Positions 18,974-35,130 of a stretch of 35,130 nucleotides of DNA are shown piece after piece. Position numbers and translations under genes: made by a program. Numbering within the stretch: position 1 is the first letter of the stretch; each line of letters opens with the position of its first letter. The DNA comes from Oscillospiraceae bacterium (GTDB lineage Bacteria > Bacillota > Clostridia > Oscillospirales > Oscillospiraceae), in the NCBI GenBank assembly GCA_021205095.1, contig JAJPYE010000040.1, positions 16,149-51,278 of the forward strand, read 5' to 3'. The notes under the pieces are model-generated. The model was given only the letters and a program-made list of their open reading frames with translations. It ran no database searches and was not told the DNA's origin.

Positions 18974-20482
18974 ATGATAAAATGGTTTACATTGCTTTTT
19001 TTAACGCCTGTTCTGCTGTTGAGCCTCACAGCGTGCAACAGCGATCCAGTGCAGTCCAGCTTATCTTCTGAAATACAAACCTCTTCAAACAACGAATCGG
19101 AACCGTCAGACATATCTTCTGAAACGAAGAGCCCTTCAAACGAGGAAGGAAGTGATATAGTGAAAAACAACATTCTGGTGGCGTATTTTTCAGCCACAGG
19201 GACAACGAAGGCTCTTGCAGAATATGCGGCAGATGCTTTAGGCGCAGACATTTATGAAATTGTGCCGGAGGAACCTTATACGGAGGAGGACTTGGCTTAT
19301 TATACCGGCGGACGCGCCGACCGTGAACAGAACGACGCTTCCGCTCGCCCTGCAATTTCCGGCAGTGTAGAGAATATGGAGCAGTACGACATCATTCTGC
19401 TCGGTTATCCCATCTGGCACGGACAAGCGCCCAGAATTATCAGCACCTTCCTCGAAAGCTATGATTTCTCCGGCAAGACGATTTTGCCGTTCTGCAGCTC
19501 GCATAGCAGCGGCATCGGCTCTTCTGCAACAGATTTGCAGTCTCTGACTGACAATACAAATTGGCTCAGCGGCGAACGCTTCGCTGCCGATACATCAAAA
19601 GAGGACATTGCCGCCTGGCTGGAAAGCATCGGACTTCAAAAGACCGCGTCTTCAAATGCAAATATAGGCGAATTTGATTTCGAAACAAAGACTGTGCTAC
19701 TGAACAGCGGCTATGAAATGCCGATCATGGGACTTGGTACTTATAGTCTGAGTGACAATGAGTGCGCTGCTTCCATTGCCGCCTTGTTGGAAGCTGGGGG
19801 CAGGCTGATCGATACCGCCTATATGTATGGAAATGAGGCTGCAGTCGGGCAGGCAATCCGGGACTCCGACGTGCCGAGAGAAGAAATTTTTGTGATCACA
19901 AAGCTCTACCCAAGCCAATATGACAACGCCGCCGAGGCGATTGACGAGGCATTGGAAACAATGGGCTTGGATTACATCGACATGATCCTCCTGCACCATC
20001 CGGGGGACGGCGATGTGGAAGCATATCTTGCACTGGAACAGGCGGTTGCTGATGGAAAAGTTCATTCTATCGGCTTGTCCAACTGGTATGTGGAAGAGTT
20101 AGAGGAATTTCTGCCGCAGGTAAACATTACGCCAGCACTTGTGCAAAACGAGATTCATCCGTATTATCAGGAAAACGATGTGATTGCTTATATTCAGTCT
20201 CTCGGAATCGTGGTGCAGGGTTGGTATCCATTCGGCGGTCGGGGTTATACGTCGGAGCTGCTGGGCGACGAAACCATCACTGCCATCGCCGAGGCGCACA
20301 GCGTTTCTTCCGCGCAGGTGATTTTGCGATGGAATTTGCAGAAAGGAGTCGTAGTCATCCCCGGCTCCAGCGATCCTGACCACATCCGGGAAAACCTCGA
20401 CCTGTTCGGCTTTGAGCTCACCGATGAGGAAATGGAACAAATCAATGCCCTCGATCGCAATGAAAAACACGATTGGTATTAA
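18974..20482 (+). CDS. Lipoprotein fusing a flavodoxin domain to an aldo/keto reductase
   Basis: 502 residues. The N-terminus is a lipoprotein signal with lipobox L-T-A-C (Cys21), then a Ser/Glu-rich spacer. A flavodoxin-like domain (about 65-220) carries the FMN-phosphate loop F-S-A-T-G-T-T-K and G-Y-P-I-W-H-G. A short linker leads to an aldo/keto reductase barrel (about 235-502). Its tetrad is visible: Asp280 and Tyr285 in D-T-A-Y-M-Y-G-N-E, Lys310 in I-T-K-L-Y-P and His341 in L-L-H-H-P-G. The NADPH-site region V-I-P-G-S-S is also present. Both domains look intact. AGGAGG precedes the ATG. From knowledge of related anaerobes, flavodoxin and AKR lipoproteins tend to be separate genes near a LysR regulator; here they form one chain. 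A membrane-anchored, probably extracellular AKR is puzzling because NADPH is cytoplasmic; electrons might come through the flavodoxin half. That is inference. Confidence 0.9.
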   Translation: MIKWFTLLFLTPVLLLSLTACNSDPVQSSLSSEIQTSSNNESEPSDISSETKSPSNEEGSDIVKNNILVAYFSATGTTKALAEYAADALGADIYEIVPEEPYTEEDLAYYTGGRADREQNDASARPAISGSVENMEQYDIILLGYPIWHGQAPRIISTFLESYDFSGKTILPFCSSHSSGIGSSATDLQSLTDNTNWLSGERFAADTSKEDIAAWLESIGLQKTASSNANIGEFDFETKTVLLNSGYEMPIMGLGTYSLSDNECAASIAALLEAGGRLIDTAYMYGNEAAVGQAIRDSDVPREEIFVITKLYPSQYDNAAEAIDEALETMGLDYIDMILLHHPGDGDVEAYLALEQAVADGKVHSIGLSNWYVEELEEFLPQVNITPALVQNEIHPYYQENDVIAYIQSLGIVVQGWYPFGGRGYTSELLGDETITAIAEAHSVSSAQVILRWNLQKGVVVIPGSSDPDHIRENLDLFGFELTDEEMEQINALDRNEKHDWY

Positions 20483-21189: not shown

Positions 21190-21263
21190 AGCGGGATTGT
21201 GTAAAGGTAGCACAGCGGACTCTGACTCCGTATGTGAGGGTTCGAATCCTTCTCCCGCTGCCA
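21190..21263 (+). tRNA. tRNA-Gln (anticodon CUG)
   Basis: 74 nt with CCA encoded. The 7-bp acceptor stem is AGCGGGA (21190-21196) with TCCCGCT (21253-21259), discriminator G. The D arm contains AAAGGTAG, the anticodon loop reads CTCTGAC (anticodon CTG), and the T loop is TTCGAAT. The cloverleaf was folded by eye and all arms pair. It decodes CAG. Confidence 0.95.
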
Positions 21264-21466: not shown

Positions 21467-22975
21467 TTGTCAGACCGATCCTATATTGCCATTGACCTGA
21501 AATCCTTCTACGCCTCTGTGGAGTGTGCAGAACGAGGGCTTGACCCGCTGACCACCAACCTTGTGGTAGCGGACAAAAGCCGCACGGAAAAAACTATATG
21601 TCTTGCGGTGTCGCCGTCTCTGAAATCCTTTGGCATCTCCGGGCGGGCGCGGCTGTTTGAAGTCGTCCAGCGGGTAAAGGAAGTCAACCGAGACCGGCAG
21701 CGCCGTGCGCCGGGGCATACCTTTTCCGGTTCCTCCTGCGACCTCAACAGGCTGAACGCCGACCCAGCGCTGTCGCTGGACTATATCGTAGCCACACCGC
21801 AGATGGCCCATTATATTCAGCGTAGCACGGAAATTTATCAAATCTACCTTCGATTCATCGCCCCGGAGGACATCCATGTTTACAGCATCGACGAGGTATT
21901 CATGGACGTAACCGACTACTTGCAGACCTATCAGCTCACCCCCCATGAGCTGGCCATGAAAATAATTCAGACCGTCCTGGAAGAGACTGGCATCACGGCT
22001 ACCGCCGGGATCGGCACAAACCTATATCTCTGCAAAATCGCCATGGACATCGTAGCGAAGCGCATCCCCCCTGATAAAGACGGGGTTCGCATTGCAGAGC
22101 TGGACGAGACGAGCTACCGGCGGCAGCTTTGGGCGCATCAGCCCATCACAGACTTCTGGCGGGTAGGACGCGGCTACGCCAGGCGGTTGGAGAAGCTGGG
22201 ACTTTACACCATGGGCGATATTGCGCGGTATAGTCTGAACAGCTACGGTGAAAGCCGACTGTACAAGGAGTTCGGCATCAACGCCGAGCTTCTGATTGAC
22301 CACGCCTGGGGCTGGGAGCCCTGCCGCATTTCCGACATCAAAGCATATAAGCCGGAGAATAACAGCATCAGCTCCGGGCAGGTGCTGCAATCGCCCTATG
22401 AATTTGAAAAGGCCAAGCTGGTCGTCCGGGAAATGGCCGACGCTCTTTCTCTCGACCTGGTGGACAAGGGGCTGGTGGCCGATCAGATTGTGCTTACGAT
22501 TGGGTATGACATTGAAAACCTGACCGATTCAAAGCGGCAGAAAGCATATAAGGGCGAAGTCACGCTTGACCACTACGGCAGGAAAATTCCGAAGCAGGCC
22601 CACGGCTCCATCAACCTGGGGCGGCAGACAGCCTCTACCATGCTGATCACCAACGCTGCAATGGAGCTGTTCGACCGCATCGTTGACGAAAATCTGCTGG
22701 TGCGCCGGATGTATGTGGTCGCCAATCATGTGGTCGGCGAGGATATGGTCAGGCCATTGGAGCCAGAGCAGCTTGACCTGTTCACGGACTATGCCGCCCT
22801 GGAGCTGCAGCGGAAATCGGAACAGGAGGCGCTGGAAAAGGAAAGACGTCGGCAAAAAGCCGTTCTTTCCATTCAGAAAAAGTATGGAAAAAACGCCCTC
22901 CTCAAGGGTATGAATCTGGAGGAAGGCGCCACCGGCAAAGACCGAAATGCGCAAATCGGAGGACACAAAAAATAA
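21467..22975 (+). CDS. Y-family DNA polymerase (UmuC/DinB-like, mobile-element type)
   Basis: 502 residues from a TTG start at 21467, chosen because AAAGGAGG lies 6 nt upstream and the Y-family domain begins right after (Y-I-A-I-D-L-K-S-F-Y-A-S-V-E). The frame is open upstream with no good start. The metal-binding acidic residues are in A-I-D and in Y-S-I-D-E-V-F-M-D. T-A-G-I-G-T-N-L-Y-L and a little-finger region follow. The C-terminal ~60 residues are a charged Lys/Glu helix. By family knowledge these are error-prone translesion polymerases. This long variant, together with a YolD-like gene just downstream, is common as cargo on conjugative transposons and phages of gut Clostridia. I see no LexA-like operator with confidence. 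Confidence 0.92.
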   Translation: MSDRSYIAIDLKSFYASVECAERGLDPLTTNLVVADKSRTEKTICLAVSPSLKSFGISGRARLFEVVQRVKEVNRDRQRRAPGHTFSGSSCDLNRLNADPALSLDYIVATPQMAHYIQRSTEIYQIYLRFIAPEDIHVYSIDEVFMDVTDYLQTYQLTPHELAMKIIQTVLEETGITATAGIGTNLYLCKIAMDIVAKRIPPDKDGVRIAELDETSYRRQLWAHQPITDFWRVGRGYARRLEKLGLYTMGDIARYSLNSYGESRLYKEFGINAELLIDHAWGWEPCRISDIKAYKPENNSISSGQVLQSPYEFEKAKLVVREMADALSLDLVDKGLVADQIVLTIGYDIENLTDSKRQKAYKGEVTLDHYGRKIPKQAHGSINLGRQTASTMLITNAAMELFDRIVDENLLVRRMYVVANHVVGEDMVRPLEPEQLDLFTDYAALELQRKSEQEALEKERRRQKAVLSIQKKYGKNALLKGMNLEEGATGKDRNAQIGGHKK

Positions 22976-22988
22976 AGGGGGCAATTCA

Positions 22989-23429
22989 ATGGCCGACAGA
23001 AAAATGGAAGACTATCAGAGCATCATTCATCTGCCCCATCACGTTTCAGAGACCCGGCCTCATATGTCCATACGCGACCGGGCGGCGCAGTTTTCGCCGT
23101 TCGCAGCGCTGACCGGCTATGATGCCGCCGTGAGGGAAACGGCCCGATTAACCGACCAGCGGGCGGAACTGGATGAGGACATGAAGCAGAACCTGTCGGA
23201 GCGGCTGAATTGGATTCAGGAGAATCTGGCGACGGCCCCTTTGATTAAAATCACCTACTTTGTCCCCGACGAGCGCAAGGAGGGCGGGGCTTACCGCACT
23301 GTCACCGGCACGGCGAAGCGGATCGACACGCATCAACGAGCCGTCATGCTGGCAGACGGAACGACCATCCCGATTGACGAAATCATAGAAATCGACGGGG
23401 CGATGTTCCGCTCAGAACCCGCGACATGA
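22989..23429 (+). CDS. YolD-like protein, partner of the Y-family polymerase
   Basis: 146 residues, starting 13 nt after the polymerase stop with AAAGGGGG upstream, so cotranscribed. It contains H-M-S-I-R-D-R-A-A-Q-F-S-P-F-A-A-L-T-G-Y and a second half with T-I-P-I-D-E-I-I-E-I, as in YolD-like proteins. In Bacillus, YolD-type proteins act with the Y-family polymerase UvrX/YqjW and are thought to play a UmuD-like role; that function here is by analogy. Complete, no signal peptide. Confidence 0.82.
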   Translation: MADRKMEDYQSIIHLPHHVSETRPHMSIRDRAAQFSPFAALTGYDAAVRETARLTDQRAELDEDMKQNLSERLNWIQENLATAPLIKITYFVPDERKEGGAYRTVTGTAKRIDTHQRAVMLADGTTIPIDEIIEIDGAMFRSEPAT

Positions 23430-23477: not shown

Positions 23478-23509
23478 ATCTGGCCGCCCACTTTGCTGGG
23501 CGGCCAGAT
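23478..23509 (-). terminator. Terminator between the YolD-like and nitroreductase genes
   Basis: A perfect 13-bp stem (23478-23490 with 23497-23509) has a 6-nt loop. On the minus strand it is followed by TGTTTTATAT, serving the leftward nitroreductase. The plus-strand side (GTCTTATT) is weaker but may also stop the polymerase operon. Confidence 0.75.
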
Positions 23510-24351: not shown

Positions 24352-25314
24352 TTATCCGTCAGTGTGCATAGAATTCAGATTATGACACGCGACAAAATGC
24401 TGTGGTTCTACCTCGCTCAGCGCAACATCCTCATGCCGACATCTTTCTGTAGCATACATGCAGCGATTGACAAATCTGCATCCCGGAGCCGGCTCTATTG
24501 GAGACCCGATCTCCCCCTGCATGATGATTCGCTCTCTTTTTTTATGGATTGTCGGAACAGGTATAGCAGACAGAAGTCCCTTGGTATAAGGGTGCAGCGG
24601 ATTATCAAATAGCATTTTCGATGGGGATTTTTCAATCACCACGCCTAAATACATAACCAAGATCTCATCTGATATATGTCGAACGACGGAAAGATCGTGG
24701 GTAATAAATACATAAGTTAGTTTTTTCTCATCCTGTAAGTCCTGCAGGAGATTTAAAATCTGCGCCTGAATCGAAACATCCAATGCCGAAACCGGCTCAT
24801 CACATACTATAAATCCAGGATCAAGCGCCAGCGCCCTGGCAATTCCAATCCGCTGACGCCGCCCTCCATCAAGTTCGTGAGGATAGCTGTAAATCAGGCG
24901 TTCCGATAATCCCACCGTTTCCATCAGCTCCGATACGCGATTTTCCAATTCATTTCCGCGTGCAACATGAAAAATTCTCAAGGGTTCGGCAATTAAATCA
25001 AATACATTCATCCTTGGATTCAGTGACGAATATGGATCCTGGAATATTAACTGCATATCTTTCTTCAGCAGCTTTTTCTTGCGTTCGGATAAGTTTGTAA
25101 TATCCTTTCCGTCAAAAATTATCTGACCATCCGTAGCGTCTAAAATCCCCAAAATCGTTCTGCCAAGAGTGGACTTACCACAGCCCGATTCCCCTACCAC
25201 CCCCAATGTTTTTCCTTGTTCAATACTAAAACTAACGTCATCAACAGCATGCAGCATACCTGCGGGCGTCTTAAAATATTTCTTCAGATTTTTGACTTCC
25301 AGATAGTTACCCAT
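24352..25314 (-). CDS. oppF: Oligopeptide/dipeptide ABC transporter ATP-binding protein (OppF-like)
   Basis: 320 residues from the ATG at 25314 (GGGAGGA upstream); it overlaps the oppD end by 8 nt, so translation is coupled. Walker A is G-E-S-G-C-G-K-S-T at 41-49. The Q-loop region is I-F-Q-D-P-Y-S-S-L-N-P. Walker B ends in F-I-V-C-D-E-P-V-S-A-L-D. A C-terminal Opp/Dpp extension has a Cys-rich C-x6-C-x6-C pattern. The signature motif reads L-D-G-G-R instead of L-S-G-G-Q. With OppD it powers import through OppB-OppC. The second Cys-containing C-terminal domain is typical of F subunits. The exact substrate is unknown. Confidence 0.93.
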   Translation of the reverse strand: MGNYLEVKNLKKYFKTPAGMLHAVDDVSFSIEQGKTLGVVGESGCGKSTLGRTILGILDATDGQIIFDGKDITNLSERKKKLLKKDMQLIFQDPYSSLNPRMNVFDLIAEPLRIFHVARGNELENRVSELMETVGLSERLIYSYPHELDGGRRQRIGIARALALDPGFIVCDEPVSALDVSIQAQILNLLQDLQDEKKLTYVFITHDLSVVRHISDEILVMYLGVVIEKSPSKMLFDNPLHPYTKGLLSAIPVPTIHKKRERIIMQGEIGSPIEPAPGCRFVNRCMYATERCRHEDVALSEVEPQHFVACHNLNSMHTDG

Positions 25315-26296
25315 TATCTTCCCTCCTGCCGCAAACATCCTTTAGAGGCATACAACACTTAACATAATGAGTGCTTGATAATTGTAAACACCCCGGATCC
25401 GAAAGGCTGCATTTTTCCTGATGGTATGCACATCTTGGCGCAAATCGACATCCATCAGGCAGATTTGTTGGATCCGGCATTAGGCCGGGTATTTGCTTAA
25501 GCCTTTTCACATCCTTATCCAGCGAAGGCAACGAATCAAAAAGCCCTTGCGTATAAGGATGGGCCGTATGTAAAAAAATTTCCTCAAGAGTTCCAAATTC
25601 AACAATTTGCCCCGCGTACATAATCGCAACCTTATCGCAGCAATCGGCCACAACGCCAAGGTCATGAGTTATCAGAATCATTGAGCTTCCAAGATCTTTC
25701 TTCAGATCATTCATCATGTCCAAAACCTGGGCCTGTATCGTAACATCCAAAGCTGTAGTCGGTTCGTCGGCAATCAGAAGCTCAGGATTGCACGCCAGCG
25801 ACATAGCAATAACCACTCGTTGCTTCATGCCGCCGGAGAATTGATGCGGAAAATCCCGGCAACGGTCTGCGCGAATACCAACCCGCACCAACATATCAAT
25901 CGCCTGCTGCATGGCTGATTTCATTGTACACTTGGAATGTAAACGGATTACCTCCGCTATTTGCTCGTCCACGCGTATAACTGGATTCAACGCAGTCATA
26001 GGATCCTGAAAAATCATAGAAATGCGATTCCCGCGAACCTTTCGCATTTCCGATTCCGAGGCGTTCACTAAGTCCTTTCCGTCAAATATAATCTCTCCGT
26101 TCAAAATTTTACCGGGCGGAGATGGAATCAACTGTAAAATTCCAAGGGCTGCCGTAGTTTTTCCTGCGCCCGTCTCTCCCACCAATCCAACCGTTTCTCC
26201 TCGCTCGACGCTCAGATCTATACCGCTTACAGCCTCCACGACGCCTTCATCCGTAAAGAAGCTGATAGACAAATTTCTAATGTCCAACAAGGCCAT
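25307..26296 (-). CDS. oppD: Oligopeptide/dipeptide ABC transporter ATP-binding protein (OppD-like)
   Basis: 329 residues. Walker A is G-E-T-G-A-G-K-T at 40-47, the Q-loop is I-F-Q-D-P-M-T-A-L-N-P, the signature F-S-G-G-M-K-Q-R is standard, and Walker B is L-L-I-A-D-E-P-T-T-A-L-D. The C-terminal Opp/Dpp region with G-C-R-F-A-P-R-C is present. AGGAGG precedes the ATG. It starts 14 nt after the oppC stop and overlaps oppF. Confidence 0.95.
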   Translation of the reverse strand: MALLDIRNLSISFFTDEGVVEAVSGIDLSVERGETVGLVGETGAGKTTAALGILQLIPSPPGKILNGEIIFDGKDLVNASESEMRKVRGNRISMIFQDPMTALNPVIRVDEQIAEVIRLHSKCTMKSAMQQAIDMLVRVGIRADRCRDFPHQFSGGMKQRVVIAMSLACNPELLIADEPTTALDVTIQAQVLDMMNDLKKDLGSSMILITHDLGVVADCCDKVAIMYAGQIVEFGTLEEIFLHTAHPYTQGLFDSLPSLDKDVKRLKQIPGLMPDPTNLPDGCRFAPRCAYHQEKCSLSDPGCLQLSSTHYVKCCMPLKDVCGRREDNG

Positions 26297-26310
26297 TTCT
26301 CAATCCCTCC

Positions 26311-27195
26311 TCATCTTTTCAATCTTGGGTCAAGCGCGTCCCGTAAGCCGTCTCCAAAAAGATTAAACCCAAAAATAGTAACCATAATTGCAATTCCCGG
26401 AAAAGTTACCATTGGCCAAAAATCACGTATGTATACACGACCAGCCGAAAGCATGCTGCCCCATTCGGGAGTCGGAGGCTGCACTCCCAAACCGATAAAG
26501 CTAAGACTGGAGATAATCATAATGCAGGCGCCAATACGCAGTGTCGAATCTACAATAATCGTGGAAAGCGTATTAGGAACAATATGCCGAATCATGATGC
26601 GGAGATGGCTGGCGCCATTCATATACGCAGCTTCAACAAATTCCTGATTTTTTATTCCAAGCACCTGCGCCCGCATCAATCTTGCATAACTTGGTATACA
26701 TCCAACAGCAATGGCAATGGCTGTGTTTCGCACGCCAGATCCAAGCGCCGCCGATATGCAGATGGCCAGCAAAAAGGACGGAATCGCCATAATAACATCC
26801 ATAATTCGCATTAACAATCCGTCTATTTTTCCTCCAAAATAGCCGGAACAAACTCCGATAAAGCATCCACATATTAGCGCGATTATGATAGCGGTAACGG
26901 ATACTAAAAGAGAAATTCTCCCGCCATACAACACGCGGGTAAAAATATCCCGTCCATAATTATCAGTTCCAAATAAGTGTTCCGTGCTGGGGTATTGAAA
27001 CGTATTCGATAGATCCTGTTGCGCATAATCATATGGTGATATAACATTAGCAAACAACGAGGAAAAAACAACAACGAACACAAAAATCATACCGACGATA
27101 GCAAGCTTGTTCCGCAGTAATCGCTTCCATACAAGTGTCCATTTACTTGTATGCTTTTTCTCGTGAATAGAATTTAAGTCAGATTTTCTTTTCAT
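26311..27195 (-). CDS. oppC: ABC transporter permease (OppC-like)
   Basis: 294 residues from the ATG at 27195 (AGAGG at 8 nt); the frame could begin at a TTG six codons earlier, but that overlaps the oppB stop. It has an N-terminal cytoplasmic tail, a first membrane helix, then the C-subunit motif H-L-F-G-T-D-N-Y-G-R-D-I-F-T-R. The EAA-loop region (E-A-A-Y-M-N-G-A-S) contacts the ATPases. About six membrane helices. It lies 14 nt after oppB. Confidence 0.95.
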   Translation of the reverse strand: MKRKSDLNSIHEKKHTSKWTLVWKRLLRNKLAIVGMIFVFVVVFSSLFANVISPYDYAQQDLSNTFQYPSTEHLFGTDNYGRDIFTRVLYGGRISLLVSVTAIIIALICGCFIGVCSGYFGGKIDGLLMRIMDVIMAIPSFLLAICISAALGSGVRNTAIAIAVGCIPSYARLMRAQVLGIKNQEFVEAAYMNGASHLRIMIRHIVPNTLSTIIVDSTLRIGACIMIISSLSFIGLGVQPPTPEWGSMLSAGRVYIRDFWPMVTFPGIAIMVTIFGFNLFGDGLRDALDPRLKR

Positions 27196-27209
27196 GTAAT
27201 GAACCTCTT

Positions 27210-28172
27210 TCAATTCACCTTATTTTTCCTCTTTCGTTTGCCGCCGGAAAATTCTGCCTGAATCCGCGGATCAATAAAGCCGTAAAGAATGTCAATGATT
27301 AAATTCAATACACAAACAACCGCTGCCAGTACTAATACGCATCCCTGAATTAAATCATAGTCCTGATTGCTGACTGCCGTAGTAATAAGGGTGCCAAGTC
27401 CAGGAATACTGAATATACTTTCAACTACCACGGAACCCGCAATCATGGTCCCAAGCTGAAAGCCAATGGTCGTAACGATTGGAATAATTCCATTTCTCAA
27501 GGCATGTTTAACAACAATTTTAGGTTCAGACTGTCCTTTAGCTCTTGCCGTTCGGATGTAATCCTGGCGAATAACATCAAGCATACTGGATCGCGTAAGT
27601 CTTGTAATCGTTGCAATAGACGATATTCCAACTGCAATAGCAGGCATAATCCAGCTTTTCCAGCTCTGCAATCCAGATGCCGGCAGCCAGCGCAAATTTA
27701 GCGCGAAAAGCAAAATCATCATCAACCCAAGCCAAAAACCGGGCATCGAGGCAAAAATCAGTGAAAAAATCGTAACTATGTAATCGGCAATGGAGTATTG
27801 CTTGGTAGCGCTGATTACTCCGCAAGGTATTCCTATACAAATCGTAATTGCGCAGCCTATCAAAGCCAGCTTCAACGTAACAGGAAATCGATCTTTGATT
27901 TCTTCAGCTACCGGACGCTTAGTTTTGTAAGAGGTTCCCAAATCGAATTCAGTTACGATGCCCTTCAGATATTCATAAAACTGCGCAAAAAACGGTTTAT
28001 CCAATCCCATTTCCGCTTCGACTCTGTCATATTGTTCCTGTGTATAATTTGCTCCTAGCGATGCAGCAACTGGATCTCCTGGAGAAAGACGATTAATGGA
28101 AAACACGATAAACACCGCCCCAAACAACACCGGTATCATCCATAGGATTCGTTTAAGCACATATTTGAACAT
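27210..28172 (-). CDS. oppB: ABC transporter permease (OppB-like)
   Basis: 320 residues. N-terminal R-I-L-W-M-I-P-V-L-F-G helix, then the B-subunit motif R-L-S-P-G-D-P-V. The later Y-I-R-T-A-R-A-K-G coupling loop and the H-A-L-R-N-G-I-I-P-I-V-T motif are conserved. About six membrane helices. AGGAGGG precedes the ATG. An 84-nt gap with a 13-bp hairpin separates it from oppA. Confidence 0.95.
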   Translation of the reverse strand: MFKYVLKRILWMIPVLFGAVFIVFSINRLSPGDPVAASLGANYTQEQYDRVEAEMGLDKPFFAQFYEYLKGIVTEFDLGTSYKTKRPVAEEIKDRFPVTLKLALIGCAITICIGIPCGVISATKQYSIADYIVTIFSLIFASMPGFWLGLMMILLFALNLRWLPASGLQSWKSWIMPAIAVGISSIATITRLTRSSMLDVIRQDYIRTARAKGQSEPKIVVKHALRNGIIPIVTTIGFQLGTMIAGSVVVESIFSIPGLGTLITTAVSNQDYDLIQGCVLVLAAVVCVLNLIIDILYGFIDPRIQAEFSGGKRKRKNKVN

Positions 28173-28201
28173 GATGTACCCTCCTATAAATTATCTCTAT
28201 A

Positions 28202-28232
28202 GACCTGGAACTGTATAAAACAGTTCCAGGTC
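28202..28232 (-). repeat. Intercistronic hairpin between oppA and oppB
   Basis: A perfect 13-bp stem (28202-28214 with 28220-28232) has a 5-nt ATAAA loop. No U run on the minus strand, so it is more likely an attenuating or 3'-protecting element that raises oppA over the membrane genes than a full terminator. Confidence 0.65.
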
Positions 28233-28256
28233 GTGTTAGGATTCATTACCCGCATT

Positions 28257-29846
28257 TTAATCATTGAACGTTATGTACATAACGTACGGAGCGTTATAGA
28301 TATATGTCGGAATTTCCGCAATATCTTCTGAATAGGCCATACAACTCATTGGATTGCAAATTGGCAGCCAACGATAATTGTCATGATCCCATTCCTGCAC
28401 ACCGGCATACGCTTCAGCGCGCACATCGCTATCGGTTGTGCTTTTTCCTGCCTCCAAGAGAGCATTAAGGTCGGGATCCTCGCTCTTATTAGCTGCATTG
28501 GAGCTTGTGCTTCCATGCGTTTTGTAATTGTCCGCCGCATCGGAAACGCCGCCATTCAAACTGCCGGTGCAAATTTCGGCCTCCATGTTTTGAAGCATTG
28601 GGATTGCTGTTGCGAAGTCATAAATTTCAATTTTGATTTGTATGCCAATTTCATTCATATAAGCCTGGAAAATCTCGCTTAACGATTCATTTACAGGCGT
28701 GGACGGCGCAATGAGTCGGAGCGATATATCTCCCGCTTCGTAACCGGCTTCAGACAACAGCTCTATGGACTTTTCAGGATCATATTCATATATGCCCTGA
28801 GATTCATAATAATCCAGTCCCTTAATCAACGTGGAGTCCGCCACTTCGGCCAGGTCGCCGTAAATCGCGGCTGTCATTGCCTCAGTATCCATTCCATACG
28901 CTATGGCCTCACGTACGCGTATATCGTCAAAAAGCTCTATATATTCGGGAAGCGCGATAAAAATCAGATCATAAGTCGGCACCAACTGGTATGTTATACC
29001 CTCACTCTCGCCATTCATAACACGCTCCGCATCTGTTACTGCTATGTCAACAGCAATATCTAATGCGCCGGTCTCCAAATCAACGTACATTGTGGATGCT
29101 TCATTGTAATAATTAATTGTTACCTCATTTGCCTCAGGCAAGCTGCCCCAGTATTCGTCATTGCGAACATACGAGCTGTGCGAACCGGCCACATTTTCGA
29201 CCAGTGTATACGGGCCTGAACCAACCGGCTCATCCCAAAACGCCTCATCGCTGGTACTCTCTACATAGGACTTGCACAACACACATGCCCATCGGGCCGC
29301 AAGATGAATTAAAGCGGCTGCATTGACCTGTTTATATACCAAAACAAGGGAATTACCATCAATATAAGACGCATCAAAATCAATGTCCGCGAAGCTCAAG
29401 GATGACGTAAAGCTGTCATTCACATAAACCGTCCGCCAGAGGGAATAGTAAACATCCTCTGGAGTCAGTTTTTCTCCGTTGGAAAAGTATATATCATCGC
29501 GGATGTCCAATTTCAGCGTAGTATCATCCAGCCATGTCCAGTCCTCTGCCACACACGGAGCCAATTCCATGGTTTCAGGATCCCGTGTCAGTATTGTATC
29601 GTACACCATAAAGCACGCAATATCCAATTCGCTGCTGAGCGGATCAAAAGAATCCGCGGATTGCAGCGTTCCAATGCTTAAATCATGGTATACCGCTTCT
29701 TCTGTATCTGCATCATTTGACGTCTCCTGTGTGGAAGCAGCGGTTTCGTTGCTGGTTTTCGTCTCTGATGTCCCGCAAGCGCTTAAAAGGGCGAGAGACA
29801 TTGCAAGAGCAAGGATTATACACAGGAATTTAGCATATTTACTCAT
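28257..29846 (-). CDS. oppA: ABC transporter substrate-binding lipoprotein (OppA/DppA-like, SBP family 5)
   Basis: 529 residues. Signal with lipobox L-S-A-C (Cys24), then a Thr/Ser/Glu linker. The mature part has the family-5 layout, including D-S-F-D-P-L near the start of domain I and L-R-L-I-A-P-S-T-P-V-N in the C-terminal lobe. Family-5 proteins bind peptides, but also nickel, opines, heme and sugar derivatives, so the ligand is open. GGAGG precedes the ATG, 34 nt after the reductase gene: no promoter fits there, so it is part of the operon. Confidence 0.93.
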   Translation of the reverse strand: MSKYAKFLCIILALAMSLALLSACGTSETKTSNETAASTQETSNDADTEEAVYHDLSIGTLQSADSFDPLSSELDIACFMVYDTILTRDPETMELAPCVAEDWTWLDDTTLKLDIRDDIYFSNGEKLTPEDVYYSLWRTVYVNDSFTSSLSFADIDFDASYIDGNSLVLVYKQVNAAALIHLAARWACVLCKSYVESTSDEAFWDEPVGSGPYTLVENVAGSHSSYVRNDEYWGSLPEANEVTINYYNEASTMYVDLETGALDIAVDIAVTDAERVMNGESEGITYQLVPTYDLIFIALPEYIELFDDIRVREAIAYGMDTEAMTAAIYGDLAEVADSTLIKGLDYYESQGIYEYDPEKSIELLSEAGYEAGDISLRLIAPSTPVNESLSEIFQAYMNEIGIQIKIEIYDFATAIPMLQNMEAEICTGSLNGGVSDAADNYKTHGSTSSNAANKSEDPDLNALLEAGKSTTDSDVRAEAYAGVQEWDHDNYRWLPICNPMSCMAYSEDIAEIPTYIYNAPYVMYITFND

Positions 29847-29880
29847 CTTTTACCTCCAATTATTGTTGCATACTGTGTAC

Positions 29881-30939
29881 TTATGTAAGCTCACATAATT
29901 CCACTAAATTATTTCTTTCCGCTAGCCGTGTTCCATTAGAGATTTCCAATACCATAGACATAATCTTTTTATTGTATGGCATCCTTAGTTCATTTTCTTC
30001 CCCCTTTCGTATCACATATCCGTTAATGTAACCGATTTCCAACTCACGTCCTCTCTTTATGTCTCCCGTATAAGCATCCGTCAGAGTCAACTTCCCCGTT
30101 CCAGAATCATCTGACTTCTTTTGACGTTTGGCCTCCGTTGCCGCTAAAAATTTATCCTGAAGCTCCGGGACATCTCCGTTGGCCAACTGATTCCATTCAT
30201 CAGCAGAAAGTCCCATAATATATCCGTGTGGAAAACCACATGCGCTTTGTACATTTAAAACCTCAACAGCTGATTTCCCGAACACACGTTGTACAAGCGA
30301 ATCATCGAAGTGTGAAAAAAGACTGTAGCCACTGACGCACGCGACTGGAACAGTTAGGCACACTTCCGCCATTTTTCTCCATCTTGCGGCCATTATATTA
30401 TCCGAAATCTCAACACGTTTAACGCACCCCAGAATATTCGCAAGCTCCTTCAGTCGATCACTCGTACTTCCATCAATTTCCCCAATGATAAAATACCCGT
30501 CATGTGTTATAACATACCCGGTCTGCCGACTTTGTCCACCAGTAAAGCATATACAAGGGATAACAGAATTTCTTCCAACAATCCGCCCTATCGTCTCATC
30601 GTTCAGGCCATTTTGCAAGGAACAAACAATTCCATTTTGCGCTAAATAAGGTTTGACCGCCTCCATGACCGACTCGGTTTCGTTAGAGCGAACAGTTACG
30701 AACATTAAATCGAACCGTTCTTCCGGCAAAATTTCGTCAATAAAAATGCTGCGCACGGAGGCCGAAATCGTCTGATCAGCCTGTTGAATGGTAATACCTT
30801 GCTGTCTGATTGTATTTACAACGTCTTTTCGGAACATGGATATAACCGTTATATCATATCCCGCATTGGCCAAAAGTCCGCCCAACATCATTCCAATCGT
30901 GCCAGTGCCAATTACCGCGATATGCTTTGTACTCTTCAT
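29881..30939 (-). CDS. Ketopantoate-reductase-like oxidoreductase (ApbA/PanE family)
   Basis: 352 residues. N-terminal Rossmann motif G-T-G-T-I-G at about 11-16; S-L-Q-N-G-L-N as in the family; a Lys in R-W-R-K-M-A at the catalytic-Lys position; and the C-terminal helical-domain motif G-D-I-K-R-G-R-E-L-E-I-G-Y-I-N-G. PanE makes pantoate with NADPH, but many paralogues in catabolic clusters reduce or oxidise other 2-oxo/2-hydroxy acids. With no pan genes nearby, a role in the operon's pathway is more likely. AGGAGAGG precedes the ATG, 9 nt after the dehydratase gene. Confidence 0.85.
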   Translation of the reverse strand: MKSTKHIAVIGTGTIGMMLGGLLANAGYDITVISMFRKDVVNTIRQQGITIQQADQTISASVRSIFIDEILPEERFDLMFVTVRSNETESVMEAVKPYLAQNGIVCSLQNGLNDETIGRIVGRNSVIPCICFTGGQSRQTGYVITHDGYFIIGEIDGSTSDRLKELANILGCVKRVEISDNIMAARWRKMAEVCLTVPVACVSGYSLFSHFDDSLVQRVFGKSAVEVLNVQSACGFPHGYIMGLSADEWNQLANGDVPELQDKFLAATEAKRQKKSDDSGTGKLTLTDAYTGDIKRGRELEIGYINGYVIRKGEENELRMPYNKKIMSMVLEISNGTRLAERNNLVELCELT

Positions 30940-30948
30940 GATCCTCTC

Positions 30949-32220
30949 CTATATATCATTGCGACTTGGAAGCACCGCCTCGGTCGGACAAACTTGTATA
31001 ATATCCCCATCCAATGTCTCCGCCCAGAGGGCAAATTCAACTACATGTTCACCTTCCGCATTTATGTACTTTCCGATAACGACCGCCCGGCCAATAACGG
31101 TGTCTCCCTCCGCGCCGTGCCGGTTACAATATCGCCCTTCCATTCCCGGAACTCTATTAAACATTTCTATCCCCAGTTTTTCAATGCGAAGTTTTTCAAA
31201 GAAGGGATATAACATCCATCCAAACCGGCTAATTCTTCCTTGATTACCAATATAGTTCGTAATCGTGCGCGCAATAAGGAAAGCTGCATCCGTATTATAA
31301 AATACAGCGCATCCGTTGGGATAGTTCTCGCCCCCAAAATGCTTAGCCGTCTCATCAAGATACGCGCCGTTTTTATCTCTATAAACGAATTGAAGATATT
31401 CCGGGTCAGACAATTCCTCTCTTGTAAAAAGATACTCTGGTGGGATCGGTTCCCAAGCGACAATGTGCATGTATGTTACGGGTCCATCGGAACACGTTTT
31501 GGGAACTTCCGTTCCAATTTCTACATCCTCCCAATATAACGGTTTCTCTCCCCGGATTTCCTCCTGCTTCCATAATTCCCGAATTTTTTCATAATCCTCA
31601 TCCGTGGTATAGTGCGGCTGTGGAAAGTAATCTCTCCACTCTGACATGTTCTGATTGTAATCCTGAGGGATCCTACCGTCTGTAAATTTTTGATAGCCCT
31701 CCCGCGTTTTGTATACCGATCTGTCTATGACCTGTCCCGCCTTATTATACGTCTGCGTCGCCGTTTCGAACTCCCAAACGCGCACATCCGAATGTTCCTT
31801 TGTAAGTTCATATAAATGCGGCGTGATCTGGCATTTGATCAGTTCATCTCCGCTGCACACGCGTTTATAATAATACTGGTCTCCGCCCAGTGCCGTATAG
31901 TAGAAATTGCTTCCTATATCTCTCCTAAAGTGTGGCATGCTCTCGTCTATTGGGTCAAGTCGTCTATGAATAAATCCGGGCATTACCGGCACGCCCGTTA
32001 GCCCCTGACTGCGTGCATATTCCAAGTCGTTATACAGTCTGTCATATGGATTCCAACGTTTATTAAATTCAAGTACCTCCTGGTCGCTTATAATATCATA
32101 GCTGTCATCCTCTGTGGGCATATGGGGTTTAAAATCTTCTATAAATTTAAGTCTTTCTTCAATTTGTCCTTTTTCCCAGTCGAAATATTCACCGCACTTG
32201 AACACTTGATTATCACTCAT
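30949..32220 (-). CDS. MaoC/FAS1-like dehydratase-domain protein (double hot-dog)
   Basis: 423 residues; the ATG at 32220 fits AAGGA at 8 nt, whereas the ATG three codons earlier is too close to it. The protein has the size and layout of a two-hot-dog acyl dehydratase: an N-terminal half with G-V-P-V-M-P-G-F-I-H, a middle stretch P-L-Y-W-E-D-V-E-I-G-T-E-V-P that opens the second half in MaoC-like proteins, and a C-terminal G-D-T-V-I-G-R-A-V-V strand. The usual hydratase-2 Asp/His motif is not obvious. By family knowledge such proteins hydrate or dehydrate enoyl-CoA-type substrates. Function in this operon unknown. Confidence 0.72.
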   Translation of the reverse strand: MSDNQVFKCGEYFDWEKGQIEERLKFIEDFKPHMPTEDDSYDIISDQEVLEFNKRWNPYDRLYNDLEYARSQGLTGVPVMPGFIHRRLDPIDESMPHFRRDIGSNFYYTALGGDQYYYKRVCSGDELIKCQITPHLYELTKEHSDVRVWEFETATQTYNKAGQVIDRSVYKTREGYQKFTDGRIPQDYNQNMSEWRDYFPQPHYTTDEDYEKIRELWKQEEIRGEKPLYWEDVEIGTEVPKTCSDGPVTYMHIVAWEPIPPEYLFTREELSDPEYLQFVYRDKNGAYLDETAKHFGGENYPNGCAVFYNTDAAFLIARTITNYIGNQGRISRFGWMLYPFFEKLRIEKLGIEMFNRVPGMEGRYCNRHGAEGDTVIGRAVVIGKYINAEGEHVVEFALWAETLDGDIIQVCPTEAVLPSRNDI

Positions 32221-32289
32221 AGATTTCATCCTTTTTGAATTTATTAGCCTTAAATACTAAGGTTTAAGTCTGAACTTTATGATTTATAT

Positions 32290-33216
32290 TCAACTGATGC
32301 ATGTATAAACTGAATAAGGGGGCCGCGGATCTCCGGTTTCTGTAAGAAAATAATCCTCTATAATCTCCGCAATGAAAATTTTTGCTTTTGTAATATCTCG
32401 CTGCGTCGGACGATGATTATAGTCATAATGCCACATTCTGCTTCCAGGCTTCCCGCATCCCAATGGATCATTATCCGCCGTCATGCTCATCGAAAAGCTT
32501 TCCTCGTCGTTGGCACTGCTGAGTTTTTTAATATATGCTACTTCCTCCGGCGTATACTTCTGAAACTCCTCTGCATCAGGATTTTCCTTGTATCTCTGCA
32601 TAAGCGCCTGCGCATCATCAATAACCAGCTTAAAACGCGTTGATATTTTTTCCACGGAGTTATGCCGTACTTCCTTCCCTGGGCAGGCAAACTTCCCTAC
32701 CATTCGCACGTTATTGACGCGCAGAAGCTCTCGAATCACCTCCAAGGTTCCGTAACATTCATCCGGACCGCAGCCGCTTCCCCCATATGTGCAAAAGGCA
32801 ATGCCATAATGCGTTTTACTGAATTCACCTTTTGTTCCTGGCGTACCTGTCCCTACGGCGGGTGCAACTACGCCCGGAATACCCTTTCCATTGCTGATGC
32901 TTCCAAACGTACTATTTATCCGGGCCTCGCGATCTTTCATGTACTGTTTGTAGCCGTATAAATATTTCTTTCCCTGCAGACCGCAAACCGTGTAGACTTC
33001 TTTATAAGGGAGTCCGGCAATCACGGGACTTCCCAGCGCAACCAAATCATAATTTTCCGTATGAACCGGATTTTCATCCCAGTCATGGTTCGGCGCAATT
33101 TTTATCATGTCAACCGCAAAATTATACTCGGCCAGCACCTCCGCAAAAGCGTCCGCAATCTGTTTTGTGTTCCCTGTTAATGATCCATATAGAATACAAG
33201 CGCTTCTTTTTTCCAT
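32290..33216 (-). CDS. Long flavodoxin-family protein
   Basis: 308 residues, about twice the size of a classical flavodoxin. An N-terminal FMN loop G-S-L-T-G-N-T-K is followed by A-L-G-S-P-V-I-A-G and F-C-T-Y-G-G-S-G-C-G, all as in flavodoxins. The C-terminal ~110 residues include H-R-P-T-Q-R-D-I-T-K-A-K, an end motif also seen in anaerobe flavodoxin-like proteins. No lipobox or signal, so cytoplasmic. Probably an electron carrier or FMN oxidoreductase for the pathway. First gene of the leftward operon, with GAGGGAG before the ATG and its own promoter in the divergent region. Confidence 0.85.
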   Translation of the reverse strand: MEKRSACILYGSLTGNTKQIADAFAEVLAEYNFAVDMIKIAPNHDWDENPVHTENYDLVALGSPVIAGLPYKEVYTVCGLQGKKYLYGYKQYMKDREARINSTFGSISNGKGIPGVVAPAVGTGTPGTKGEFSKTHYGIAFCTYGGSGCGPDECYGTLEVIRELLRVNNVRMVGKFACPGKEVRHNSVEKISTRFKLVIDDAQALMQRYKENPDAEEFQKYTPEEVAYIKKLSSANDEESFSMSMTADNDPLGCGKPGSRMWHYDYNHRPTQRDITKAKIFIAEIIEDYFLTETGDPRPPYSVYTCIS

Positions 33217-33318
33217 AATACGTCTCCCTCACATTTCATCAATAATATTTTTTATTTCAAAGAAAACTTCGGTCACAACTCATCCATCGTTAAGTTGCAA
33301 ACAAGCCTTTCTGCTATC

Positions 33319-33347
33319 ATTATACATACCAGCAACACCCTTTTAAA
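33319..33347 (-). promoter_or_regulatory. Promoter of the flavodoxin-dehydratase-reductase-opp operon
   Basis: Minus strand: TTTAAA (33347-33342), 17-nt spacer, TATAAT (33324-33319). Consensus -10, weak -35, as expected of an activator-dependent promoter. The leader is about 95 nt. Confidence 0.65.
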
Positions 33348-33355
33348 TGGATTAT

Positions 33356-33402
33356 TTTGTGATTCTCTTGACATCGTTTTGTAGAAATGTTACAATCACA
33401 AA
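33356..33402. promoter_or_regulatory. Candidate operator pair of the divergent region
   Basis: A 9-bp inverted repeat, TTTGTGATT (33356-33364) and AATCACAAA (33394-33402). One arm lies just upstream of the operon -35; the other overlaps the -10 of the regulator promoter. Confidence 0.5.
33368..33396 (+). promoter_or_regulatory. Promoter of the PucR/CdaR-type regulator
   Basis: TTGACA (33368-33373), 17-nt spacer, TACAAT (33391-33396) preceded by TGT (extended -10). The predicted leader is about 25 nt. Confidence 0.82.
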
Positions 33403-33428
33403 GAATCTTAAGGAGGTATATTTCTCTT

Positions 33429-34874
33429 ATGGTATTGAATCTGTGGCTCGTTTCAGATTGGTTTGAACATCGGGGGTATAATCTTGAACGAGAGGAAATT
33501 GACAACGATAATTGCCTTGTAGAATACCTCCATTTCTCGTCAGCGCCTGTGGATCACTCGCCCTCCGGCCTTTGTCAATCCTGCGGGAAAGATTGCCGCA
33601 TCTATGCCGGAAAGGGTTATCTTACAATTAAGGACAGAACACAAGATCAGGTTGCTTCAGAATTTTCGGCAATGCAGACTGTTTTCTCTCAATGGGAACG
33701 AGACTGCTTTGATTCATTGATTCATGTGAGAGAACTTCAACACTTAGTTGATATTACCGCCAAAGTTCTTCCGCATCCGTTTTGCATTAAAAATAGCGAG
33801 GAAATAATATTTGCTCAAACAAAAGGTTTTGACTCGCTCACAGCCAATATGCAAAAACACGCATTTGATAAAGCTGGGCGATTTGAGTATTCCTATGCAA
33901 AAGCACAGGAGTCAAAGGAACCAATTTTTTACTATTCCCCTGTTTATGGTTCAAATATTGCCCAGGTAAACCTCTGGCAAAAAGGACGAAATGTGGGAAA
34001 TGCTATTTTCTTGGAAAACTCCCTTCCCTTCACGAAAGGCGATTTGTTCCTCCTGAAAAGACTAGGCGATTTTCTGAACACCTTTGTAGCCTATGACAGA
34101 AGCAGTTTATTTTCTGGGACAGGCATTTCCACTGTTCTTGTGAATTTGCTCCGAGATCGACAGACCTCTGAGGATAACATTTCATCAATTTATCGGATAA
34201 AAAACTGGTCGTATGAAGATGATTTTATCATTCTTTGCTTTCAAGATGCCTTCGATGGTGAAACGCCGCTTCGCCGTTCCCTTCGAACGATCCTTAGTAC
34301 GCACTTTGAACACTGCCAGTTGATTTTCTATTGGGACGTGCTGGGTATCATAAACGTCACGAAAAGCGGCGGGTATCCCCTCGTGATAAAACAACTGAAG
34401 AAGCTTCTCTCTGAGGACGGTGCTTTATGGGGATCCAGCTATCCCTTCAAAGGCCTTGAACGGTTGAGCGATTTTTATCACCAGGCGCAAATCGCCATGC
34501 GCTATGCCAAGCAGGTCGGCCAGCCCTATGGAAACACCTTTGGTTGCGCACTGCCTTATATGACCAACGCCATCCGCGAAAGTGAGTACGGAGAGTATAT
34601 GCTTCATCCCGATGTAGGCAGACTTCTCTCCATCGATCTGGCAGAGGGGACAGAGCATGCCCGCACACTGTTGAATTATCTCCTCTCCGGCTGCAATTAC
34701 ACAGACACCGCCCAGAAGCTGGGCGTACACCGCAACACGGTCATCTATCGGATCGAAAAAATATCCCACCTGATGCTTACAGATTTGAACGACGCCGCAA
34801 ACCAAAAGCTCCTAATCTTTTCCTGTCTTGCTATGGAAAGCTCCTTTCCCACAAGGCAGGACAAAAAGGTCTGA
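33429..34874 (+). CDS. PucR/CdaR-type transcriptional regulator
   Basis: 481 residues from the ATG at 33429; AGGAGG lies 12 nt upstream, slightly long. The C-terminal HTH (about 425-475) has Y-T-D-T-A-Q-K-L-G-V-H-R-N-T-V-I-Y-R-I-E-K, the PucR C-terminal DNA-binding pattern. The preceding part (about 220-400) resembles the GGDEF-like domain of CdaR regulators. The N-terminal part (about 60-210) is a likely sensor domain. Near the start, Cys49, Cys52 and Cys56 form C-x2-C-x3-C, with Cys29 further up, a possible metal or redox centre. It is divergent from the flavodoxin/opp operon and very likely its regulator (inference from position). GC content is low, as in the operon. Confidence 0.86.
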   Translation: MVLNLWLVSDWFEHRGYNLEREEIDNDNCLVEYLHFSSAPVDHSPSGLCQSCGKDCRIYAGKGYLTIKDRTQDQVASEFSAMQTVFSQWERDCFDSLIHVRELQHLVDITAKVLPHPFCIKNSEEIIFAQTKGFDSLTANMQKHAFDKAGRFEYSYAKAQESKEPIFYYSPVYGSNIAQVNLWQKGRNVGNAIFLENSLPFTKGDLFLLKRLGDFLNTFVAYDRSSLFSGTGISTVLVNLLRDRQTSEDNISSIYRIKNWSYEDDFIILCFQDAFDGETPLRRSLRTILSTHFEHCQLIFYWDVLGIINVTKSGGYPLVIKQLKKLLSEDGALWGSSYPFKGLERLSDFYHQAQIAMRYAKQVGQPYGNTFGCALPYMTNAIRESEYGEYMLHPDVGRLLSIDLAEGTEHARTLLNYLLSGCNYTDTAQKLGVHRNTVIYRIEKISHLMLTDLNDAANQKLLIFSCLAMESSFPTRQDKKV

Positions 34875-35006: not shown

Positions 35007-35044
35007 AAAAAAGCCCTTGAAAGCTCAGAGCTTTCAAGGGCTTT
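35007..35044 (-). terminator. Terminator downstream of a leftward gene at the right edge
   Basis: A perfect 16-bp stem (35010-35025 with 35029-35044) has a 3-nt loop. An A run at 35007-35012 gives a U run on the minus strand. It may also stop the rightward regulator gene. Confidence 0.82.
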
Positions 35045-35077: not shown

Positions 35078-35130
35078 TCACACAATATCCATGGCGGCGA
35101 ACATTCCGTCCCTGGTGGCCTGCAAAATCC
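35078..35130 (-). CDS. C-terminal end of a leftward gene, possibly an enoate-reductase-type flavoenzyme
   Basis: The last 17 codons read I-L-Q-A-T-R-D-G-M-F-A-A-M-D-I-V then stop (35078-35080), 33 nt before a strong leftward terminator. An A-T-R-D-G-x-x-A-A ending is compatible with the FAD domain of old-yellow/2-enoate reductase-type enzymes. With so few residues this is a tentative guess; the existence of a coding end is better supported than its identity. Confidence 0.4.
   Translation of the reverse strand, partial: ILQATRDGMFAAMDIV

What the first reader, a model, noticed from the sequence alone, without database searches (positions are those of the whole stretch)
24352..34874. Uncharacterised import-and-conversion locus under a divergent PucR/CdaR-type regulator
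Seen: eight genes in one leftward run with small gaps or overlaps (long flavodoxin, MaoC/FAS1-like dehydratase, ketopantoate-reductase-like enzyme, OppA, B, C, D, F), divergent from a PucR/CdaR-type regulator. Known: family-5 importers carry many ligands besides peptides; MaoC-like proteins act on acyl thioesters; PanE paralogues act on 2-oxoacids. Inference: the three enzymes and the importer handle one imported compound, with reduction driven by a flavodoxin. I know of no described pathway with this combination. A nitroreductase downstream, and a possible enoate reductase at the right edge, could belong to the same chemistry.
Basis: partly seen in the sequence, partly recalled or inferred. 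Interest (0 to 1): 0.7.

Follow-up and report, generated by a model that had tools for sequence, protein, structure and literature searches.

The report
Regulated import-and-reduction operon, ligand unknown
A bacterium of the Oscillospiraceae group carries an apparently acquired, self-regulated set of genes that imports an unknown small molecule and probably reduces it, and parts of this set recur with different transporters in its relatives.

Summary
Eight genes run leftward (flavodoxin-like FLD, double-hotdog FAS1/MaoC-like DH, PanE-like, OppA-B-C-D-F), divergent from a PucR-type regulator. The full set was not found elsewhere, but part of it recurs: FLD and DH share 8 of 400 family genomes, and 10 of 22 FLD genes lie within 6 kb of a same-strand DH, 7 of 19 without the profile's seeds. 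Enoate reductases (8 of 22) and large binding proteins (16 of 22) are frequent neighbours; transporters vary.

Same-genus G004 has the regulator (74%) and DH (64%), no FLD, a TRAP importer and a VdcC/UbiX/LpdD-like decarboxylase set. Its divergent promoter region keeps the window's spacing, with a 20-bp block found once per genome. The operon is AT-rich (0.44 against 0.61).

Best reading: an acquired, PucR-controlled module that imports and reduces a carboxylic, perhaps aromatic, compound. 'Dehydratase' is unproven: the canonical Asp-His motif is missing from both halves. The nitroreductase has its own promoter-like site; the enoate-reductase tail at the right edge looks real but lies behind a hairpin, convergent with the regulator. 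Substrate and reactions are inferred.

The parts
32290..33216 (-). FLD: long flavodoxin-like protein, 308 aa, with the SLTGNT loop (typical FMN loop, recalled) and an FACPGKE stretch whose FAC-GKE is invariant in three aligned homologues
   Evidence: PF12641 E 6.6e-9; alignment
30949..32229 (-). DH: two-domain hotdog protein, N-half FAS1_DH-like, C-half MaoC-like, 426 aa
   Evidence: 20 of 23 family members hit PF13452; C-half profile against a MaoC subunit prob 97.7
29881..30939 (-). PanE/ApbA-like reductase, 352 aa
   Evidence: PF02558 4e-25, PF08546 1.2e-12; TIGR00745 138.2 against cut-off 141.35
28257..29846 (-). OppA-like family-5 solute-binding protein, 529 aa
   Evidence: PF00496 5.7e-66
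28173..28256 (-). oppA-oppB gap with 13-pair RNA hairpin, no run of T after it
   Evidence: -30 kcal/mol, z -5.5
27210..28172 (-). OppB-like permease
   Evidence: PF00528, PF19300
26311..27213 (-). OppC-like permease
   Evidence: PF00528, PF12911
25307..26296 (-). OppD-like ATPase
   Evidence: PF00005, PF08352
24352..25338 (-). OppF-like ATPase
   Evidence: PF00005, PF08352
33319..33347 (-). leftward promoter-like site TTTAAA-17-TATAAT
   Evidence: ATTATA at the same spacing in G004
33350..33364 (.). GATTATTTTGTGATT, identical in G004, between the two promoters
33368..33396 (+). regulator promoter-like site TTGACA-17-TACAAT; 33377-33396 is a 20-base block identical in G004
   Evidence: one match per genome at up to 3 mismatches in G000 and G004
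33429..34874 (+). PucR-type regulator, revised start (481 aa)
   Evidence: HTH_30 1e-14; 74% identical to the G004 regulator
35010..35044 (.). 16-pair hairpin between regulator and the convergent reductase tail
   Evidence: z -4.8
35078..35128 (-). last 16 residues and stop of an enoate-reductase-type protein, cut by the contig end

Best explanation
It is a horizontally acquired, self-regulated uptake-and-reduction operon. A PucR-type regulator acts on the conserved sites between the two promoters and turns on the leftward operon when its ligand is present (conserved architecture shown, binding and activation inferred). A complete family-5 ABC importer brings in one small compound (importer shown by its parts, ligand unknown). 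Inside the cell the PanE-like reductase, the two-domain hotdog protein and the long flavodoxin take part in its reductive conversion, with electrons passed to an enoate-reductase-type flavoenzyme such as the one whose tail lies at the window edge (inferred from recurring neighbours). The compound is probably a carboxylic acid, possibly hydroxyaromatic, because the same kind of regulator in G004 stands between a TRAP importer with DH and a decarboxylase set nearest to hydroxyaryl-acid decarboxylases (inference).
For: Tight leftward gene run and complete importer. FLD and DH share 8 of 400 family genomes: strong hits 9 and 10, p 2.7e-14; all hits at E 0.001, 24 and 18, p 1.5e-6; by genus, which allows for relatedness, 3 shared of 106, p 2e-4. 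10 of 22 FLD genes have DH within 6 kb, same strand; without the three profile seeds 7 of 19, p 8e-7 at an assumed 3% chance and 0.002 at 10%. Opp genes beside FLD or DH in L013, L014, L135. Enoate reductases in the stretch of 8 of 22 FLD genes, large binding proteins of 16 of 22. Regulator 74%, DH 64% identical in G004, with identically spaced promoter elements. VdcC-like UbiD, VdcB-like UbiX and a PAC_bac protein in G004. GC 0.443 in the operon against 0.607 to the left; a serine recombinase near the G004 locus.
Against: The exact gene set was found once. G004 has DH and the regulator but no FLD, and G005 has DH without FLD. PanE in 1 of 42 loci. 12 of 22 FLD genes have no DH within 6 kb, some on short contigs. 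Loci were collected through DH or FLD hits, and the FLD profile was built from three genes that lie beside or near DH. The chance figures rest on an assumed 6 DH per 2.4 Mb, and the strong-hit limits were set after seeing the lists. Related loci elsewhere are not AT-rich (twelve measured, 0.50-0.62). The reductase tail belongs to a convergent transcript. No expression or binding data.
Confidence: 0.45

Rival explanations
1. A reductive amino-acid or 2-oxoacid branch: imported peptides yield 2-oxoacids, the PanE-like enzyme reduces them to 2-hydroxyacids, DH dehydrates these and the flavin enzymes reduce the enoate, as in Stickland-type reduction.
For: PanE-like PDB hits include 3wfi/5x20, recalled as D-mandelate dehydrogenases (one search names them 2-dehydropantoate 2-reductase, E 8.7e-9); oligo_HPY ATPases are typical of peptide importers (recalled); enoate reductases near 8 of 22 FLD genes.
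Against: PanE found in 1 of 42 loci; no aminotransferase among the operon's genes; no CoA-transferase III in 9 of 9 genomes searched, though other CoA-transferase families were not searched.
Confidence: 0.2
2. The importer carries a metal complex or opine, unrelated to the enzymes.
For: Permeases score just under the nickel-type Opp2 cut-offs (345.5 of 350; 299.6 of 300, though Opp4C scores higher at 304.6 of 350); a NikA model is the best NCBIfam hit of the binding protein.
Against: Binding protein scores 137.4 of 600 for that NikA model and 67.7 of 800 for CntA; FLD or DH sits beside Opp genes in three other loci.
Confidence: 0.12
3. The genes are neighbours by chance on an acquired island, with no common pathway.
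For: Gene content differs between loci; PanE only here; AT-rich stretch.
Against: FLD-DH same-strand pairing, shared regulator and promoter, tight spacing.
Confidence: 0.15
4. DH is a non-catalytic acyl- or ligand-binding protein, and FLD plus an enoate reductase do the chemistry.
For: Canonical motif missing from both halves; candidate His kept in 18 of 23.
Against: The split relative in L143 also lacks His in its FAS1_DH half but keeps the full motif in its MaoC half, so an active enzyme can look like the N-half; many other residues are invariant in 23 members.
Confidence: 0.15

Closest known systems
BilR-BilS bilirubin reductase operon (PMC10769871, passages seen)
   Same: Old-yellow-enzyme-family reductase beside a flavodoxin-like protein in a small operon, in some strains with a MarR-type regulator
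   Different: FLD scores 23.8 against the BilS cut-off of 155; the four neighbouring reductases scanned score 239-376 against 750 for the long form; DH and importer are extra
Bai bile-acid 7-dehydroxylation genes (pathway recalled)
   Same: BaiCD-type reductase relatives, and SnoaL-like proteins near some FLD or DH genes
   Different: The four reductases scanned reach 215-405 bits of the 825-bit BaiCD cut-off; no CoA-transferase III in 9 of 9 genomes searched
FAS1_DH plus MaoC gene pair next to two CoA-transferases III and an HpcH/HpaI lyase in G796 (L143), resembling itaconate-type degradation (recalled)
   Same: The pair matches the two halves of DH
   Different: The L143 MaoC keeps GDYNPIH, DH does not; no CoA-transferase III in the nine DH genomes searched
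VdcBCD/LpdBCD hydroxyaryl-acid decarboxylases
   Same: A relative stands beside the G004 regulator
   Different: UbiD scores 432.9 of the 650-bit VdcC cut-off; none in the window locus

Membership tests
FAS1/MaoC hydratase | N-terminal FAS1_DH_region domain | tested here: met
   20 of 23 family members at E 0.01; the window protein alone E 0.0044, under the curated cut-off
FAS1/MaoC hydratase | C-terminal MaoC-type domain | tested here: met
   hhalign prob 97.7, E 2e-12 against the L143 MaoC subunit; against a general set of 27 hotdog proteins only prob 19.8, E 0.0012, three shuffled controls 0.1-0.2
FAS1/MaoC hydratase | D-x-N-P-x-H catalytic motif (recalled) | tested here: not met
   N-half: Tyr or Phe for His in 23 of 23 (also in the L143 FAS1_DH subunit); C-half: motif absent, one His kept in 18 of 23
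FAS1/MaoC hydratase | CoA activation genes nearby | tested here: not met
   CoA_transf_3 in 0 of 9 genomes; AMP-binding matches 2-12 per genome, none inside the fetched stretches of those genomes; other CoA-transferase families not tested
BilRS | BilS equivalog score | tested here: not met
   23.8 of 155 bits
Ketopantoate reductase PanE | ApbA and ApbA_C domains | tested here: met
Ketopantoate reductase PanE | TIGR00745 cut-off | tested here: not met
   138.2 of 141.35
Family-5 (Opp/Dpp/Nik) ABC importer | SBP_bac_5, two permeases, two ATPases with oligo_HPY | tested here: met
Family-5 (Opp/Dpp/Nik) ABC importer | A named ligand class | tested here: inconclusive
   No cut-off reached among the NCBIfam hits shown for the five proteins (best 25 shown for the ATPases)
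PucR/CdaR regulators | PucR C-terminal HTH | tested here: met
   HTH_30 1e-14; GGDEF_2 only E 0.077

The most novel reading that the evidence does not exclude
An undescribed modular system of Oscillospiraceae-type bacteria: a long flavodoxin and a two-domain hotdog protein form an interchangeable core for reducing imported compounds without CoA activation, plugged into different importers (Opp, TRAP, SNF, large binding proteins) and coupled to an unusually large set of enoate reductases (28-51 Oxidored_FMN matches per genome in five genomes of the family).
Probability: 0.3. Interest if true: 0.65.

Novelty: new variant of a known kind. Interest (0 to 1): 0.45.

Why it matters
If right, it gives a marker pair (FLD plus DH) for a group of anaerobic reductive conversions whose substrates are unknown, and a regulator with a defined, conserved promoter region that makes the ligand directly testable. 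The transporter swap between two same-genus genomes shows how such modules are re-plumbed.

Tried and rejected
Considered and rejected: nitroreductase as part of the operon (193-nt gap and its own promoter-like site); BilS, BaiCD and strict PanE membership (under cut-offs); a wider regulon in G000 or G004 (one operator match each at up to 3 mismatches). No relatives of DH or FLD in the plasmid collection and none of DH in viral contigs. The scan of named genomes gave one relative of DH, L008, whose contig has the length of G004:C36. The general MaoC comparison of the C-half was weak; the L143 subunit settled it. Gene calls in high-GC loci chose wrong strands at first and were redone with homology support. 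The tail was first scored without an offset and did not stand out. An earlier count gave 15 FLD genes with a large binding protein; the recount is 16. Literature: nine searches, seen as listings with starts of abstracts; no listed title described this gene combination. The library is limited to open licences. Of papers, only passages of PMC10769871 and PMC10865409 were seen. Limits: the 400-genome searches scored at most 4 candidates per genome, so DH and FLD counts are lower bounds; one search scored at most 13.
Full report
Observation. The window is G000:C50:16149-51278 and its right end is the contig end. Eight genes lie on the minus strand between 24352 and 33216, divergent from a PucR-type regulator. 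DH is the weakest: no match at E 0.001, and E 0.0044 to FAS1_DH_region at a looser limit. As a family the match is clear: 20 of 23 aligned members, window protein included, hit FAS1_DH_region at E 0.01, and the profile of the 23 finds MaoC-like structures (3exz, E 3.2e-6).

Transcription. Gaps are -32, 14, -4, 84, 34, 9 and 60 nt. The 84-nt gap between oppA and oppB holds a 13-pair hairpin without a T-run after it (read from the sequence); such stems after binding-protein genes often adjust expression (recalled). Promoter-like sites as such are near chance number in the region (27 found, 23.6 expected). Two are credible by conservation: TTTAAA-17-TATAAT leftward and TTGACA-17-TACAAT rightward stand back to back at 33319-33396, and in G004 the elements keep the spacing, ATTATA to GATTATTTTGTGATT 31 bases and to TTGTAGAAATGTTACAA 60 bases. 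The longest shared block is 20 bases, against at most 11 in 300 single-base shuffles, and it occurs once in each of the two genomes at up to 3 mismatches, with no match of the reversed control. The rightward site overlaps the start codon that the ORF listing gave, so the regulator probably begins at 33429; the G004 protein aligns with that start from residue 1.

Conservation of the set. DH was found in 5 of 60 relatives, own genome included, and in 18 of 400 family genomes at E 0.001, ten of them below 1e-30. Of 398 phylum genomes 46 matched, mostly over the N-half only; besides the window's genome only G754 and G654 matched over most of the length. FLD matched 4 of 60 relatives, one of them weakly, and 24 of 400 family genomes, nine below 1e-20. 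Eight family genomes have both. The hypergeometric p is 2.7e-14 on strong hits and 1.5e-6 on all hits; genomes of one genus are not independent, so the genus-level figure is fairer: DH in 5, FLD in 4, both in 3 of 106 genera, p 2e-4. Against this, G004 and G005 have DH without an FLD hit. In the fetched loci 22 FLD genes were labelled: 10 have DH within 6 kb, all on the same strand, in nine loci; 16 have a large binding protein and 8 an enoate reductase in the fetched stretch, three and one of these on the other strand. Three of the ten (window, L053, L066) were the seeds of the FLD profile; without them it is 7 of 19. Opp genes stand beside FLD or DH in L013, L014 and L135, all from the window's genus, and on the opposite strand in L058 from another genus. 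PanE was labelled in 1 of 42 loci.

The G004 comparison. G004 carries DH (64%) and the regulator (74%), but a TRAP importer instead of FLD, PanE and Opp, and downstream of the regulator UbiD, UbiX and a small PAC_bac protein. The UbiD is nearest to VdcC (432.9 of 650 bits), the UbiX to VdcB (232.8 of 290; above the UbiX subfamily cut-offs). LpdD is described as a prFMNH2-binding chaperone with structural similarity to Pba3/4 (PMC10865409, abstract and passages), which fits the PAC_bac name; that the G004 protein is an LpdD is my inference. Since regulator and promoter are shared, the inducer may be similar, hence the guess of a hydroxyaromatic acid.

What DH is. In G796 (L143) two adjacent genes, FAS1_DH (154 aa) and MaoC (159 aa, with GDYNPIH), match the two halves of DH and lie beside two CoA-transferases III, with an HpcH/HpaI lyase further along. 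The DH C-half profile matches that MaoC subunit at prob 97.7, so DH looks like a fusion of such a pair. The N-half has Tyr or Phe where a catalytic His would be in 23 of 23, as has the L143 FAS1_DH subunit, so this is no sign of decay; the C-half has lost the motif and keeps one His (297 in the window) in 18 of 23. MAFFT sets that His opposite the L143 motif's His, hhalign leaves the stretch unaligned. CoA-transferase III is absent from nine genomes searched (it rang in 5 of 14 controls), and no AMP-binding match falls inside the stretches fetched from them. Hydratase activity and a CoA ester as substrate are open.

Reductases. Four enoate-reductase-type neighbours of DH or FLD match BaiCD, bilirubin reductase and mycofactocin OYE models well under their cut-offs. 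Oxidored_FMN matches per genome, fragments included: G090 51, G118 42, G241 35, G180 29, G289 28, G028 14, G017 13, G000 11, G004 10. In a sample of 150 family genomes 105 had a match, many of them one to five; that search scored at most 13 candidates per genome, so it cannot rank the rich ones. The tail at the window edge is of this type and convergent with the regulator; a 16-pair hairpin (z -4.8) lies between, so it should belong to another transcript.

Origin. GC is 0.607 up to 17.9 kb and 0.443 in the operon; the G004 locus is also lower than its left flank (0.50-0.56 against 0.61), with a serine recombinase on that side. A tRNA-Gln at 21190 and a DinB-type polymerase lie in the window's AT-richer part. 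No element boundary was found, and twelve related loci measured 0.50-0.62, so the donor is unknown.

Verdict. A cluster of ordinary parts with a recurring pair that the searches made here did not find described. Operon layout and regulator are well supported; the chemistry is inference.

Noticed in passing
window 18974-20482 (+): Protein with a lipoprotein-like start (read by eye) that fuses a flavodoxin (Flavodoxin_4, E 1e-47) to an aldo/keto reductase (E 1.1e-49), next to a LysR regulator; an exported aldo/keto reductase would be odd.
   Followed up: partly
G090, G118, G241, G180, G289: 28 to 51 Oxidored_FMN (old yellow enzyme) matches in genomes of 2.4-3.1 Mb.
   Followed up: partly
L143:8319-15148: FAS1_DH plus MaoC pair with two CoA-transferases III and an HpcH/HpaI lyase, like an itaconate- or mesaconate-type pathway (recalled).
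   Followed up: partly
L136:6926-10922: In a distant family DH lies near a flavodoxin-ferredoxin fusion and an MFS transporter.
   Followed up: partly
L137:9232-12211: In another distant family DH lies between an enoyl-CoA hydratase (ECH_1) and a Pyr_redox_2 protein.
   Followed up: partly
L057:1202-3897 and L059:8963-11662: Two different DH genes in tandem, followed by an enoate reductase or a piece of one: possible heteromer.
   Followed up: no
L126:9711-11929 and L128:8853-10697: Two different FLD genes in tandem.
   Followed up: no
window 23478-23509: 13-pair terminator-like hairpin on both strands between the polymerase gene's short neighbour (22947-23429) and the nitroreductase.
   Followed up: no
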